This document shows positions 2,754 to 22,678 of a stretch of DNA of 36,861 nucleotides, one piece after another. The stretch comes from Pirellulaceae bacterium. Lineage in GTDB: Bacteria; Planctomycetota; Planctomycetia; Pirellulales; Pirellulaceae. The notes under the pieces are model-generated. The model was not told where the DNA came from and did no database searches. It saw only the letters and a program-made list of their open reading frames with translations. Positions within the stretch are counted from its first letter, which is position 1. Each line of letters begins with the position of its first letter. Position numbers and translations under genes: made by a program. The stretch lies in assembly GCA_022448645.1 (NCBI GenBank), contig JAKVBZ010000012.1, forward strand, positions 1 through 36,861. Direction: 5' to 3'.

Positions 2754-4184
2754 TCAGTGGATCTGTTCGTAATAGAACTTCAAAAAAGTATTTTTTGTCA
2801 AAAGTTGACGGTATTGGGCCGAACCGCGAACATCAGAAATCGGTGATATCTCTTGTATGGCAACATTACCCGCACCTCGCATGGTGTCTGTAGTGAAAGG
2901 CTTTCCTGTTAGGTATTGCTCGGTTTGTCGAGCACGCAATACGTTCGGACCGACGGCTCCAAACGCAACGCGCGCCTGGCGTATTTCGTCACCCTCTCGC
3001 TGTAGCATGATGCCAGCGGTAAAAGTAGCGATGTCCAGGTCTCGGCGTCTGGCAACGCGATATAATCCGATCGTCTGATTCGGCTGTGGGATCGGAACCT
3101 TGACAGAAATTAACAACTCACCAGGTTTCTGGTTAAACTTTTTATATCCTGTGTAAAAATCGTTCAAAGGTACGGTGCGAGGGCCGTCCGGGCCCAGCAG
3201 CTCAAGACTCGCTTCGGCAATCAGGAAAAAAGGTAACGAATCGGCGATAGGAGAAGCATTAAAGATGTTTCCACCAACCGTTCCGACGTGGCGAATGTGA
3301 GGTGAACCAAAGACTCGTAGGATCTTGGCAAATTCTGGAAGCCGGGTTTGGCAGAGCTGCAGCACCTGAGTCCAAGTGGCGCGACTGCCTAAGATCAGCT
3401 GTTTCTCAGTACCGAAAACGTCGGTCAATGCTGAGATGCGGTTTAGATCAATTAGGATTTCCGGAGTAAACGATCCCTTGTTGATCTGAACGCCAAGATC
3501 GGTGCCGCCAGCGACAAGTGTGGCAGTGGGATATTGAGCGTAAAGCCGCACACATTCGTCGATCGTCGTTGGGCTGAACAACTGACGAGACGGCTGACCA
3601 TTGGCTGGTGACGAGATGGCGATCGTGTCGGTTGTGTGTGCCCCAATGTTCTGGACCATGTCCCTATCAGGATACAAGTCGCCGAGGCGTTCATGGGCAG
3701 CTTGTTTCAGCTCCTCGGCCGCTTCCAGGATGGGAGCATAACCCGTGCAGCGGCAAAGGTTTCCGGTCAATCCGTCACGCCATGCTGTGGAGGAAATGGG
3801 TGGTTCTCGCTCAAGAATCCCTGTTATTGCCAGTACGAATCCAGGTGTGCAGAAGCCACACTGAGAGCCATGACACCGGACCATTGATTCTTGTACGGCG
3901 GTCAAGTTACCGTGGGACTCGATTCCTTCGACGGTCACAATGTGGCAGCCGTCCAGTTGATACACGAAACGGATGCAGGCAAGGAGTGTCTGATATTGGA
4001 CCTGTCCATCAACCAGTTTTCCACAAAGGACTGTGCAGGTCCCACAATCGCCTTCGCTGCAGACCACTTTGGTACCAGTCAGTCGCAGTTTTCGACGCAA
4101 GAAATCTGCCAGGGACCAGAATACCTCGCTACCTCTCAGTTGGTACTGCCGTCCGTTAACGTACAGTAGCACAAAGTCGCGCAT
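2754..4184 (-). CDS. xdhA: Xanthine dehydrogenase small subunit (2Fe-2S and FAD domains)
   Basis: XdhA carries electrons from the molybdenum centre of XdhB through two 2Fe-2S clusters to FAD and NAD+. Residues 1-75 are a plant-type ferredoxin domain with cluster cysteines C42, C47, C50 and C70. Residues 80-160 are the helical second-cluster domain with C109-x2-C112 and C144-x-C146 (QCGFCTPG, CRCTGY). From about residue 195 there is a FAD-binding domain of the CO-dehydrogenase-flavoprotein type, with VAGGTDLGVQ and TVGGNIFNASPIADS. The 476-residue length fits the bacterial XdhA form. The ATG at 4184 has an AAGGGG Shine-Dalgarno with a good spacer, and a sigma70-like promoter lies just upstream. 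It is first in the operon, followed by xdhB and xdhC. Confidence 0.95.
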   Translation of the reverse strand: MRDFVLLYVNGRQYQLRGSEVFWSLADFLRRKLRLTGTKVVCSEGDCGTCTVLCGKLVDGQVQYQTLLACIRFVYQLDGCHIVTVEGIESHGNLTAVQESMVRCHGSQCGFCTPGFVLAITGILEREPPISSTAWRDGLTGNLCRCTGYAPILEAAEELKQAAHERLGDLYPDRDMVQNIGAHTTDTIAISSPANGQPSRQLFSPTTIDECVRLYAQYPTATLVAGGTDLGVQINKGSFTPEILIDLNRISALTDVFGTEKQLILGSRATWTQVLQLCQTRLPEFAKILRVFGSPHIRHVGTVGGNIFNASPIADSLPFFLIAEASLELLGPDGPRTVPLNDFYTGYKKFNQKPGELLISVKVPIPQPNQTIGLYRVARRRDLDIATFTAGIMLQREGDEIRQARVAFGAVGPNVLRARQTEQYLTGKPFTTDTMRGAGNVAIQEISPISDVRGSAQYRQLLTKNTFLKFYYEQIH

Positions 4185-18668: not shown

Positions 18669-20216
18669 TTACTTTGCCAGTTCCGTAAATCGAGCTTCGC
18701 GCACAACGGTCACCTTGATTTCACCTGGATAAGTCAAACTTTCTTCGAATGCCTTAGCGATGTCCCGGGCGATTTTAGAGGCTGCTCCATCGTCCGTCTG
18801 TTTCGCGCTGGCGATGACACGCAACTCGCGCCCGGCTTGGATGGCGAACGCCTGCTCGACGCCATTAAAACTCTTTGCAATCGACTCCAGCTCTTCCATG
18901 CGTTTGATATAACGTTCCAAGGTTTCTCGGCGAGCCCCAGGTCGAGAAGCGCTACACGCGTCGGCCGTCGCTACCAACATGGTATAAGGATATTCGGTGA
19001 CGATTTCGTCGTGGTGACCAAAGGCTGCGTGGACGACTTCGGGGCCTTCACCGTGTCGCTTGAGCAAGTCTGCACCGATCTTGGGATGTCCGCCTTCCAT
19101 GTCGTGGTCGGCCGCTTTTCCAATGTCATGTAGTAGTCCACAACGGCGAGCAAGCACACCATCCAATCCGACAATTTCAGCTAACATTCCGCTTAGGTAG
19201 GCGACTTCGATTGAATGACGCAACACGTTCTGGCTGTAACTGGTTCGGAAATGCAGCCGTCCCAACATGTGTACGATCCGATCGTTTAAACCGTGGATTT
19301 CCGTCTCTTGAGCGGCTTCTTTGCCGTACTTCTGGATGAGTTGTTCTGTTTCGCTTTGAGTTTCTGTGACAATTTCCTCAATCCGTGACGGATGAATCCT
19401 GCCATCAGCGATAAGTTTATTGAGGGACAGTCGGGCGACTTCTCGACGCACAGGATCGAATGCACTCACAATGACGACCCCTGGAGTGTCGTCGATAATG
19501 ACGTCGACACCAGTGGCTTTCTCAAAAGAACGAATGTTTCTTCCTTCGCGACCAATAATCCTGCCCTTCATTTCGTCGTTGGGAATGTCGACGGTGCTCG
19601 TCGTATGTTGAGCTGTGTGGGCTGCTGCATAACGTTGCAATGACGTCAGTAATGCTTCTCGAGCTTTGGTGTCGCAAACTTCAGCGATGGCCTTTTCGTG
19701 CTTGGCAATCACAGCACCGGTTTCTTGTGTCAATTCGCGATCTAGCATTTCTAAGAGCCGTTCGGTCGCTTCCTCTTTTCCTAAACCGCTCAATTCATGC
19801 AGTGTCTGGCGCTGTTTGTCCAATAGTTTACCGAGCTCTTCATTTCTGCGGTTGTTGTCATCAATTCGCTCGGCAAGTCTTCGTTGGTTGCTTTCGACCA
19901 TGCGCTCTTGTTTGCGCAAATGATCCGCCTGTTGTTCGATCGTTTCTTGGCGCTTGTCCAACGATCGTTCACGTTCGCGTAATTCGTCACGAATCTTCCC
20001 CAACTCTTTTTCGGTTTCGGTCTTGTGGTGTAAAACCGTTTCCTTGGCTTCCAGCTCAGCTTCTTTTCTGCGATTTTCGGCGTCCTGCTGGGCGCGCTCG
20101 AGAATCATTTTCACCTGTGTTTCCGCATCTTTCCTGCGCAAACGGTCCCACAACTTGATCAGAATAAATGCCAGTACGGCAGCGACGACGGCGGTGATAC
20201 CTATATATAGATTCAC
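18669..20216 (-). CDS. rny: Ribonuclease Y
   Basis: RNase Y is the membrane-bound endoribonuclease that starts mRNA decay in many bacteria lacking RNase E. At 515 residues it matches the family. Domains in order are a single membrane helix at about 4-23; a long charged coiled coil at about 28-190; a KH RNA-binding domain with [12 protein letters not shown] at 218-229; and an HD domain with H333 (LRHSIEVAY) and LLHDIGKA, whose HD pair is H363-D364. The C-terminal block ends in [15 protein letters not shown]. The start is GTG 20216 with an AGAGGAAA ribosome site. Downstream is ymdB. Upstream is a long, inverted-repeat-rich gap, part of which may form the rny 5' leader. Confidence 0.96.
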
Positions 20217-20350
20217 GAGATGTTTCCTCTCGATAGATGATTCGTTCCAGGATGGCGTATGCTACTCGAGAGCTACTGCGTTAGGAGTGCAAAACTCCCA
20301 ACCGGCGATCAACCGACGTTTGATGAAACGAAAAAACGTGCACCACTAGT

Positions 20351-20748
20351 GCCAACCGGAATGTTGGCGGAACGCCGTTTTTCGACGTCGAGAGCAAGAT
20401 AGACAACGTGAAATTCAAGGTGTTTGTGCTGTAGTTCGCGCCCGTGGCACGGTGGAACCATACAAGCTCAAATCACGATGTGTTGAACTACAGAGCAAAA
20501 CTCTTGTCAGTTCGGTTCCGGTAACCGACCTGGATTCCGTACCTCTTGACGCTAGTCGGTACGGAAATGACGGTTGCCACACCGGAACCATCCTCAAGTC
20601 ATGCTTCAGGACAGCAGTCCAGCTGACTTGGTTCAACAACAACGTTACAGATTCCTTCAGGCACCATGACCCTAGGTCATGAAGACCTATCAACAGATCC
20701 GCCTTAGCTGACTGAAACGTCAGTTGACTGCTGGTCCAACCAGCAGTC
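20351..20748. repeat. Dense cluster of inverted repeats between rny and tilS
   Basis: About 400 bases without a supported gene are packed with stem-forming pairs. GCCAAC/GTTGGC is at 20351-20368. CTGTAGTTC/GAACTACAG is at 20429-20437 and 20485-20493. A three-part long stem spans 20514-20589: GGTTCCGGT/ACCGGAACC, AACCG/CGGTT and TTCCGTACC/GGTACGGAA. A bulged hairpin spans 20595-20630: CAAGTCA/TGACTTG, GCT/AGC and GGAC/GTCC. CATGACC/GGTCATG is at 20665-20681. CTGAC/GTCAG is at 20708-20723. A perfect GACTGCTGGT/ACCAGCAGTC with 3-base loop is at 20726-20748. None ends in a clear T run on either strand. It could be a structured RNA, the rny leader, or a remnant of a palindrome-rich element. No strand can be assigned, since stems fold on both. 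Confidence 0.6.
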
Positions 20749-20982
20749 ATGGAACAGCACACGACACGCGGCACTACTACAATCATAGCACCGATGGTCA
20801 CTGCGTATTGCCAGATCCAGTTTTTCCTCGCCAAGGCATGTAACATTGACTCACGTTTGTCGATCTCTACACTCTGATTCATCAAACAGTCTAACGGTTT
20901 CAAGCCCACAGATCTGTGTCCGCAGACGCTCACCCTAATCGTAAAACGTATTGGTAACTTCTAAACGTTTCCTCACAGCCAA

Positions 20983-21072
20983 TTTAAGGTTCAACAACAA
21001 TTTAAGGTTCAACAACAAATTAAGGTTCAACAACAAATTAAGGTTCAACAACAAATTAAGGTTCAACAACCA
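20983..21072. repeat. 18-bp tandem repeat, five units
   Basis: Five head-to-tail 18-base units of the form (T/A)TTAAGGTTCAACAACAA run from 20983 to 21072. Units 1-2 begin with T, units 3-5 with A, and the last unit ends in CCA. The 13-base core GGTTCAACAACAA also occurs alone at 20630-20642, directly after a hairpin. A GTCGGT/ACCGAC hairpin with loop GTGT follows at 21075-21090. Because 18 is divisible by three, frames through it stay open on both strands, which explains spurious repetitive peptides here. Confidence 0.9.
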
Positions 21073-21090
21073 GTGTCGGTGTGTACCGAC

Positions 21091-21480
21091 CAGTGGGTGT
21101 GACACTTCGCCAACTGTCTCCAGCCCCGAAGGGTGAAAGAGTACCGTTGCCGCGAAGTTTATCAAAACCTATGCTAACTGATCATATGGGGATTGGCGAC
21201 GAGAGGGAAGAGGGCCTGTTGTTCGTTTTGGATAAACGTAGGTTCAAAGGCTTCCGAAATCCGATTCTTCACAAAAACATCACATTAGCCCAATTCTGGG
21301 GCTGCCGATGAGTTGGTTGTTAGCAGTTGGCAAATGCACGATGGCGACGTGTGCAGAAAGTGATGTCATTGGCGCTGGGCATGAAGCATGTCTAGCAAAT
21401 GGCACCATTCTGTTTCGCCTAGGTGATCACCTCATGGCTCAGCTCTAGTTCGTTAATTTGAGTGGCTTGGGTAAGCCTCA
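21091..21480. other. Intergenic remainder before tilS with a 12-bp perfect palindrome
   Basis: The only feature I can point to is AGGTGATCACCT at 21421-21432, a perfect 12-base palindrome 48 bases before the tilS start, which could be an operator. I see no convincing coding frame and no clear -35/-10 pair. Confidence 0.4.
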
Positions 21481-22554
21481 TTGACTGTGGCGGAGGACAT
21501 CGCCTGGAGTGATACAGAGTTGACTTGTTTGTTGGAGGCGAAAATTTGTGCGGCTTGGCCCCCAGAAGTGTGGCAGTCTGTCACCGTTTTGGTTGCCGTT
21601 TCAGGAGGGGCCGATAGCGTAGCCCTGTTGCGCGCTTTGTCTAGGTTAAAAACCTCCGGAGAAGGAAGCCTGCATGTGGCTCACCTGAACCATGGGTTAC
21701 GGTCGGATGAGGCAAATGCCGATCAACACTTCGTTCAAGAATTAAGCCAGATACTCGGGCATTGCTGTCACGTGAAACAAGTCGATGTCAATCGTCTGGC
21801 CAGCGTTCGTGGGGAGGGCATCGAAGAAGTTGCGCGAGAAGTTCGATATGATTTTTTCATTGAAACGGCGCAGCGAATCGGTGCGAGATTCGTTGCCACC
21901 GCACACACGAGCGATGATCAGGCAGAAACGGTGCTTTACCGAGTCTTGCGAGGAACAGGTATTGCCGGGCTGCGTGGCATACCCGTTTATCGGAGCTTAA
22001 ATGATTTAACGACCCTGGTACGCCCGATGCTCAACGCTTCTCGTGACGAGGTTCTCGCTTATTTGGCAACATGGAATCAAGATTTTCGCAGCGATTCCTC
22101 AAATACTGACACCCGTTACATGAGGAATCGGATTCGCCACGAGTTGTTACCTCGGCTGATGAGCGACTATCATCCACGAACGCGCGAGTCTCTGTTGCGA
22201 CTGAGCGATTTGGCAGAAGGTGCACAACGTATTGTGGATGACAGAGTAGATGAACTAGCGAGCCAGGCCATCCGGACTCAAGCTCCCAATCTAGTGGAGT
22301 TGTCTTTGGAGGCTGGGTGTGCAGCAGATCCCTTTCTTTTGCGAGAATTGCTGATCCGTATCTGGCGCGAACAGGATTGGCCTCGCCAATCCATGGGCTG
22401 GGAGCAGTGGAGCTCGACGGCGTCCTTTATCCAAGGAGATCACCGTTCACAGACATCGCTAAACTTGCCAGCTGGAATTCAAGTGCTGCGAAGAGGCGAT
22501 GTGATCAAAATTGAATTCACACCGATCGTAGGCTCCAAGAGAAGCTCAGAATGA
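21481..22554 (+). CDS. tilS: tRNA(Ile)-lysidine synthase
   Basis: TilS attaches lysine to C34 of the CAU-anticodon tRNA-Ile so that it reads AUA. The N-type ATP pyrophosphatase P-loop SGGADS is at 41-46, followed by HVAHLNHGLRSDEA (about 70-83), EEVAREVRYDFF, and FVATAHTSDDQAETVLYRVLRGTGIAGLRGIP, the last being the most diagnostic TilS block. DFRSDSSNTDTRYMRNRIRHELLP follows near 200. At 357 residues it has the core and substrate-binding domain but probably lacks the full C-terminal domain of Escherichia coli TilS. The start is uncertain: TTG 21481, or GTG 21487 two codons later; neither has a strong ribosome site. It is convergent with leuB. Confidence 0.93.
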   Translation: MTVAEDIAWSDTELTCLLEAKICAAWPPEVWQSVTVLVAVSGGADSVALLRALSRLKTSGEGSLHVAHLNHGLRSDEANADQHFVQELSQILGHCCHVKQVDVNRLASVRGEGIEEVAREVRYDFFIETAQRIGARFVATAHTSDDQAETVLYRVLRGTGIAGLRGIPVYRSLNDLTTLVRPMLNASRDEVLAYLATWNQDFRSDSSNTDTRYMRNRIRHELLPRLMSDYHPRTRESLLRLSDLAEGAQRIVDDRVDELASQAIRTQAPNLVELSLEAGCAADPFLLRELLIRIWREQDWPRQSMGWEQWSSTASFIQGDHRSQTSLNLPAGIQVLRRGDVIKIEFTPIVGSKRSSE

Positions 22555-22678
22555 TCCCGACTTGTCATCAGGATCCGAAAACAGGATTCAGGTTTTGTGT
22601 TAAACCCAAATTCTGTCTCCGTTGCTCTTCCTTAAACGAGCTATACGACTTCACCCCCGTCGAAGTGAAGCTGTTGAC

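What the first reader, a model, noticed from the sequence alone, without database searches (positions are those of the whole stretch)
20351..21090. Unusually dense inverted-repeat region between rny and tilS
At least eight hairpins can be drawn by eye. From 20514 to 20748 much of the sequence lies in a stem, including a three-part stem spanning 76 bases and a perfect 10-bp stem with 3-base loop. None has the T run of an intrinsic terminator, and no coding frame has family content. Possible readings are a structured non-coding RNA, a long regulatory leader of rny, or a palindrome-rich mobile remnant. A leader would be notable because RNase Y mRNA is self-regulated in some bacteria (inference).
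Basis: seen in the sequence. Interest (0 to 1): 0.7.

Follow-up and report, generated by a model that had tools for sequence, protein, structure and literature searches.

The report
Hairpin-rich leader of RNase Y gene
Upstream of the gene for the RNA-cutting enzyme RNase Y, this planctomycete has a strongly hairpin-rich stretch that is real but has no match in its relatives; it sits where many relatives carry a small, fast-changing, membrane-protein-like gene of unknown function.

Summary
20501-20750 is the most strongly folding of 293 windows on each strand (z -6.9 and -5.7), and three perfect inverted repeats (arms 8 or more) crowd into 235 bases (1 of 1000 shuffles). No Rfam family matches, and relatives' genomes, plasmids and phages give only short chance-level pieces or nothing, so compensatory change could not be tested properly. 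The place is not empty in relatives. Between divergent tilS and rny, 53 of 64 carry a shared promoter-like motif 0.5-0.9 kb before rny (fitted on the same gaps). Most leaders hold an ORF of about 100 codons, often with a hydrophobic start, under purifying selection in close species (pN/pS 0.27-0.50). The window's 155-codon ORF (20882-20415, minus) is its probable counterpart by place and by likeness to the nearest relative, but codon usage and a profile comparison do not support that. The hairpins lie inside it. Best reading: a lineage-specific palindrome-rich part of the rny 5' transcript. Relatives' leaders fold only slightly better than controls.

The parts
20514..20589 (-). Three-part long hairpin (9-bp outer stem, inner 9-bp stem 20535-20543/20558-20566)
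   Evidence: strand assigned by inference (rny strand), it also folds on +
20594..20631 (-). Second hairpin (8-bp outer stem with inner stems)
   Evidence: fold; strand inferred
20665..20681 (-). 7-bp hairpin, loop 3; an inferred change in the P0002 relative at 20680 keeps a G-U pair on the minus strand and breaks the pair on the plus strand
20707..20724 (-). 6-bp hairpin, loop 6
   Evidence: fold; strand inferred
20725..20749 (-). Perfect 11-bp hairpin, loop 3
20415..20882 (-). 155-codon ORF (ATG at 20882) with a hydrophobic segment near its start; probable counterpart of the small ORF that precedes rny in relatives; contains all the hairpins above
   Evidence: for; others (codon usage; profile comparison) against
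20823..20949 (-). Stretch colinear with the rny leader of the nearest relative L001, start codons aligned
   Evidence: local score 22 against shuffled 12.1 (sd 2.0), P 0.004; best of 64 leaders, the second (L007) scores 20
20980..21070 (.). 18-bp tandem repeat, 5.1 copies; by the L001 alignment the rny promoter would be expected about here
   Evidence: position inferred
18669..20216 (-). rny (RNase Y: RNase_Y_N, KH, HD)
21481..22554 (+). tilS (PP-loop ATPase family)

Best explanation
The hairpin-rich stretch is part of the 5' transcribed region of rny, inside the window's version of a small fast-evolving ORF that precedes rny in the Pirellulales. Shown: the hairpins; the recurring tilS<>rny arrangement; a shared promoter-like motif and a small ORF under purifying selection in relatives. 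Inferred: that the window's 155-codon ORF is the same gene, that it is transcribed with rny, and that the palindromes arose in this lineage, perhaps by duplication of palindromic words in a tolerant, fast-evolving tail. Likely mechanism (inferred from RNase Y biology): the leader is a target of RNase Y itself. Unpaired stretches between the stable hairpins give cleavage sites, the hairpins hold back 5' exonuclease, and translation of the small ORF opens or shields them, so that the life of the rny mRNA depends on RNase Y activity.
For: tilS and rny neighbours in many of the fetched loci. Promoter-like motif in 53 of 64 relatives above every one of 130 shuffled gaps (matrix trained on the same set; of 26 further leaders only 3 exceed that bound and 11 exceed the best of 26 reverse-strand controls). 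Longest ATG ORF before rny: 79 of 91 leaders with 80 codons or more on the rny strand against 48 of 91 on the other strand; hydrophobic start in 52 of 79 against 1 of 51. pN/pS 0.27-0.50 in ten close pairs (not independent), 1.04-7.07 in the two wrong frames of the five of these pairs that had a control. Window-L001 leader alignment and start-anchored protein similarity, shuffle P about 1e-4. The ORF is kept open in a 95%-identical relative, P0002. Relatives' leaders fold slightly better than another intergenic region: locus means -0.77 (n 53) against -0.31 (n 28), P 0.007. B. subtilis RNase Y autoregulates by cleavage in its own 164-nt 5' UTR and ORF start (PMC10303841; start of abstract, passages).
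Against: The window ORF's codon score is 0.010 (0.014 from ATG 20882) against 0.072-0.226 for 17 genes. Profile comparison with the small-ORF family finds nothing. The L001 similarity was noticed by eye first, so its P values are optimistic. The fold is not shared by L002, L003 and L092, and structure is not concentrated in the small ORF in general. Nine other gaps also have 200-nt windows at z -5 or below, at differing places, some of them multicopy palindromes. No convincing promoter in the window: the best motif hit (16.0, just above the shuffled maximum) has a long spacer and lies inside the ORF. No RNA data.
Confidence: 0.5

Rival explanations
1. A palindromic mobile or repeat element (MITE- or REP-like, or a cluster of them) inserted in the tilS-rny region, with no role in rny expression.
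For: Folds strongly on both strands; two other relatives' gaps carry palindromes that recur within their own locus (L071, L015); no homolog found in relatives; the window's ORF is longer than the leaders' median of 107 codons.
Against: No second copy in the 36.9-kb window; no match beyond short pieces in 241 family genomes and none in plasmids or phages; the stretch is kept in a 95%-identical relative. Copy number in the genome was not testable.
Confidence: 0.25
2. An independent structured non-coding RNA (either strand) or a cis-regulatory RNA with its own conserved fold.
For: Best-folding stretch of the window on both strands; of three changes inferred from P0002 inside the fold, the two paired ones keep pairing on the minus strand and one breaks on the plus strand (far too few to decide).
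Against: No Rfam match at gathering score, and the two at E <= 1 lie outside the stretch; no homologous DNA found; leaders of L002, L003 and L092 unstructured; one promoter-like site found, on the plus strand, against 1.2 expected.
Confidence: 0.15
3. Chance or relict: a degenerate small ORF and intergenic DNA with palindromes and no function.
For: No coding signal in the window ORF; hairpins not found in relatives; strong folds occur in nine other gaps without a common place.
Against: Fold and inverted-repeat statistics beat the shuffles (one of 1000 equals the repeat count) and every other stretch of the window, so pure chance is unlikely, though relict palindromes are not excluded.
Confidence: 0.1

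Closest known systems
Autoregulated rny 5' UTR of Bacillus subtilis (PMC10303841; start of the abstract, passages)
   Same: A 5' leader of the RNase Y gene as a target of the enzyme; RNase Y is thought to cleave single-stranded AU-rich RNA near secondary structure.
   Different: That leader is 164 nt, with its strongest cleavages in an AU-rich 5' part holding a single stem-loop; no upstream small ORF is mentioned in the passages seen. Here the leader is 0.5-0.9 kb by prediction in relatives, hairpin-dense in this lineage, and overlaps a small ORF.
[quoted passage not shown] further details recalled)
   Same: A structured leader before the gene of a main decay endonuclease.
   Different: Unrelated enzyme and sequence; a defined stem-loop is bound there, none is shown here.
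Palindromic repeats (REP, MITE; PMC3733652 and PMC10969869 seen in a search listing only; in-frame Rickettsia palindromic elements recalled)
   Same: Dense inverted repeats, possibly inside an ORF.
   Different: No second copy found in the window; copy number in the genome not testable.

Membership tests
Autoregulatory rny leader | Transcribed upstream of and joined to rny | not testable with these tools
   Position fits; promoter-like motif in 53 of 64 relatives, none convincing in the window
Autoregulatory rny leader | Cleavage or binding by RNase Y changes rny mRNA level | not testable with these tools
   Needs RNA experiments
Conserved structured RNA | Match to a known family | tested here: not met
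   none at gathering score; two below it (21384-21432 and 20899-21041), both outside the stretch
Conserved structured RNA | Structure kept with compensatory changes in relatives | tested here: inconclusive
   No alignable DNA of the stretch; three inferred changes from P0002 only
Small ORF upstream of rny | ORF on the rny strand ending 57-294 nt before rny, of 80 codons or more | tested here: met
   155 codons, ends 198 nt before rny; the range is that of the 25 ORFs printed
Small ORF upstream of rny | Hydrophobic segment near the start | tested here: met
   max 13-aa hydropathy 2.28 in the first 45 residues
Small ORF upstream of rny | Sequence similarity to the family profile | tested here: not met
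   hhalign probability 0.1 percent, E 0.52; similarity tested only to L001
Small ORF upstream of rny | Coding signature | tested here: not met
   codon score 0.010-0.014 against 0.072-0.226 for 17 genes
REP/MITE-like repeat | Several copies in the genome | tested here: inconclusive
   One copy in the window; whole genome not held

The most novel reading that the evidence does not exclude
In the Pirellulales, RNase Y is made from a long leader that first encodes a small membrane protein; this protein or its translation controls RNase Y (as a membrane partner or as a leader peptide that opens structured cleavage sites). In the window's lineage the leader has become an array of hairpins that serves as the sensor of RNase Y activity.
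Probability: 0.2. Interest if true: 0.75.

Novelty: new variant of a known kind. Interest (0 to 1): 0.42.

Why it matters
RNase Y sets mRNA decay in many bacteria and sits at the membrane for reasons still debated. A small membrane-type ORF kept next to rny in most sampled Pirellulales leaders, with a long predicted leader, gives a concrete, testable candidate for how these bacteria control it. The hairpin stretch itself matters only if a transcript and an effect on rny are shown.

Tried and rejected
Rfam at gathering score and at E <= 1: nothing relevant. tRNA/tmRNA: none. Family genomes, plasmids, phages and viral contigs for the region or the ORF: nothing beyond short chance-level pieces (best E 0.004). 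Protein search with the 172-codon reading of the ORF: one relative, P0002, among 51 candidates; I had no tool to fetch its DNA. Sliding fold of 65 gaps: nine other gaps also have 200-nt windows at z -5.0 or below, at differing places; two gaps carry palindromes that recur in their own locus. So no one shared element. The small ORF as the general site of the structure: rejected, mean z on the rny strand is alike before (-0.79), at its two ends (-1.03, -0.90) and after it (-0.89). A general hairpin over the rny ribosome-binding site: rejected, mean z -0.28 over 91 leaders against -0.58 for the 60 nt before it, and 0.53 in the window, although single lineages show one. Window promoter: two candidates (motif scores 16.0 with a long spacer, and 2.5), neither convincing. 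Paper searches on planctomycetes with RNase Y (2 papers), Pirellula with structured or small RNA (12 of 216 listed) and planctomycetes with start-site mapping (10 of 233 listed): judged by titles and abstract starts only, none is about this leader.

Full report
What was checked. The window is from a planctomycete near the Pirellulaceae: its RNase Y is 82% identical to that of a Planctomycetaceae MAG (L001) and 77-78% to the next two (best 80 of 274 loci kept). rny (minus, 18669-20216) and tilS (plus, 21481-22554) diverge, with 1264 bases between. The claimed stems exist at the stated places; the stem with the 3-base loop is 11 bp rather than 10. I count about five clear hairpins in 20514-20749, not eight. 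The stretch 20501-20750 is the most strongly folding of 293 windows on each strand, z -6.85 and -5.72; 200-shuffle tests of 20500-20760 give -6.36 and -4.93 with no shuffle as good. Three perfect inverted repeats with arms of 8 or more compare with a shuffled mean of 0.18 (1 of 1000 shuffles reached three) and are the top of 611 windows; at arms of 7 or more the excess is weaker, 5 against a shuffled mean of 0.73 and maximum of 6.

Is it a known or conserved RNA? No Rfam family reaches its gathering score in the window. At E <= 1 two sub-threshold matches lie outside the hairpins. The intergenic DNA gave only chance-level matches in the 80 loci first fetched. In 241 family genomes, 43 gave short pieces at E <= 0.1 (best 0.004; at most two candidates were scored in each genome listed). 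The plasmid and phage collections gave none. Leaders of L002, L003 and L092 show no significant fold; that of L001, the nearest relative, is moderate, lowest z -3.3. So the sequence is lineage-specific as far as can be seen, and compensatory change could not be tested properly. The one close relative found is a protein, P0002, 95% identical to the ORF on the minus strand. Besides its start residue it shows seven changes, of which three fall in the folded stretch: one unpaired, two paired. Both paired ones keep pairing on the minus strand and one breaks on the plus strand. That is too few to weigh.

What lies there in relatives. Of 110 loci considered, 64 relatives gave distinct tilS-rny gaps of 523-1103 bases (the others lacked one of the genes, the orientation or a gap of 300-2000 bases, or were duplicates). 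Pairwise alignments showed a shared block that reads as a promoter, GTTGCAGT-n12-TGnTAnnATACT. A two-block matrix fitted to these gaps scores 53 of 64 relatives above the maximum of 130 shuffled gaps (15.7) and of the reverse strands (12.4); their predicted leaders are 513-933 nt. This is in-sample. In 26 further leaders only 3 exceed 15.7, and 11 exceed their reverse-strand maximum of 8.8; one group of eight shares a variant with CTGTTAATATA in 8 of 8. For the 26, 40 regions were fetched; 8 gave no rny start and 6 were duplicates.

A small ORF. Profile searches from a few leaders, run against open stretches of both strands, found 18 and 5 peptides of the types MHLLLIILRFLLG...VRxDGRT and MFEICQLLLISLVR, all on the rny strand (the weakest at E 0.006). 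Of these, 21 were printed with their ORFs (L092 and L118 were left out), and four were added by eye (L002, L005, L006, L008): 25 ORFs of 80-129 codons from an ATG, ending 57-294 nt before rny. Over 91 leaders (65 with the window, 26 new) the longest ATG ORF in the last 800 nt is 80 codons or more in 79 of 91 on the rny strand, 48 of 91 on the other strand and 35% of shuffles; a hydrophobic start is found in 52 of 79 against 1 of 51. Some leaders fail the ATG test (L148 and L149 among them); the alignment suggests that their group may start at GTG. In ten pairs of close species, which share members, pN/pS is 0.27-0.50, and 1.04-7.07 in the wrong frames of the five of these pairs with equal lengths. 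Nine more diverged pairs give 0.50-0.73, with 0.93-1.22 in the wrong frames of four; nine pairs give 0.51-0.75. So this is very probably a real, fast-evolving gene. Twelve aligned members (A1) match no Pfam or NCBIfam family at E <= 0.05; eight database proteins match, called hypothetical where named at all (three of eight), for instance in Blastopirellula marina.

The window's copy. The 155-codon ORF at 20882-20415 is in the right place and strand and has a hydrophobic segment. Its first 41 residues match those of the L001 ORF from the start codon on (10 identities, shuffle P about 1e-4). The DNA at 20949-20823 aligns with the L001 leader (score 22, shuffled 12.1, P 0.004) with the start codons aligned; L001 is the best of 64 leaders, the next (L007) scoring 20. 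I noticed the likeness before testing it, so these P values are optimistic. Against: its codon score is like that of non-coding frames (0.010-0.014; genes 0.072-0.226) and the family profile does not find it. I put the chance that it is the same gene at about 0.6. All five hairpins lie inside this ORF. By the alignment the promoter would be expected near 21010, inside an 18-bp tandem repeat at 20980-21070; no convincing promoter is seen.

Structure in relatives. Leader windows on the rny strand average z -0.86 (the window's included) against -0.27 and -0.28 in two coding controls. By locus they average -0.77 (53 relatives) against -0.31 for another intergenic region (28 loci), P 0.007. The excess is spread evenly before, in and after the small ORF. 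So the rny leader tends to fold a little more than its surroundings. The window is one of the stronger cases but not the only one: at 200 nt and 16 shuffles, it reaches z -5.0, and nine other gaps reach -5.0 or below at differing places, several of them at the tilS end; two gaps carry palindromes that recur in their own locus.

How it may work. In B. subtilis RNase Y down-regulates its own mRNA by cutting in the 164-nt 5' UTR and at the start of the ORF, and it is thought to cut unpaired AU-rich RNA near secondary structure (PMC10303841, passages). By analogy, the long leader here could be where RNase Y meets its own message, with hairpins spacing cleavage sites and slowing exonucleases, and translation of the small ORF opening them. 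This is inference; nothing here shows transcription or an effect on rny.

Verdict. Observation confirmed. The more general find is the unnamed small gene before rny in the Pirellulales. Interest 0.42.

Noticed in passing
20980-21070: 18-bp tandem repeat, 5.1 copies; its words GGTTCAACAACAA recur once inside the hairpin stretch near 20630. Tandem Repeats Finder lists other, different arrays in 11 of 90 relatives' gaps.
   Followed up: partly
L138, L140, L144, L145, L148, L149, L151, L152 (leaders before rny): The rny ribosome-binding site could sit in a small hairpin; in L145 and L149 the outer stem changes on both sides (TCCA/TGGA to TTTA/TAAA, with the outermost pair lost in L149). A second palindrome, TCGTTC-GGGG-GAACGA, lies between the small ORF and rny and is intact in 7 of 8 (L152 differs). 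Read by eye from the alignment, not counted with a pair test.
   Followed up: partly
20216-20232 (minus strand): CGAGA-GGAAACA-TCTCG, a possible hairpin over the ribosome-binding site and start codon of rny in the window; its 60-nt context folds no better than shuffles (z 0.53).
   Followed up: partly
21384-21432 (minus strand): Sub-threshold Rfam match to the COG3860 cis-regulatory RNA, 24.1 bits against a gathering score of 42.5, E 0.0057.
   Followed up: no
L071 9026-9225, 11561-11730; L015 5643-5842, 9793-9875: Large palindromes in the tilS-rny gaps of two relatives that recur within the same locus (MITE- or REP-like).
   Followed up: partly
2876-3125 and 22376-22625 (minus strand): Two further stretches of the window with strong folds, z -4.3 and -4.1, one within an ORF, one at the end of tilS.
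   Followed up: no
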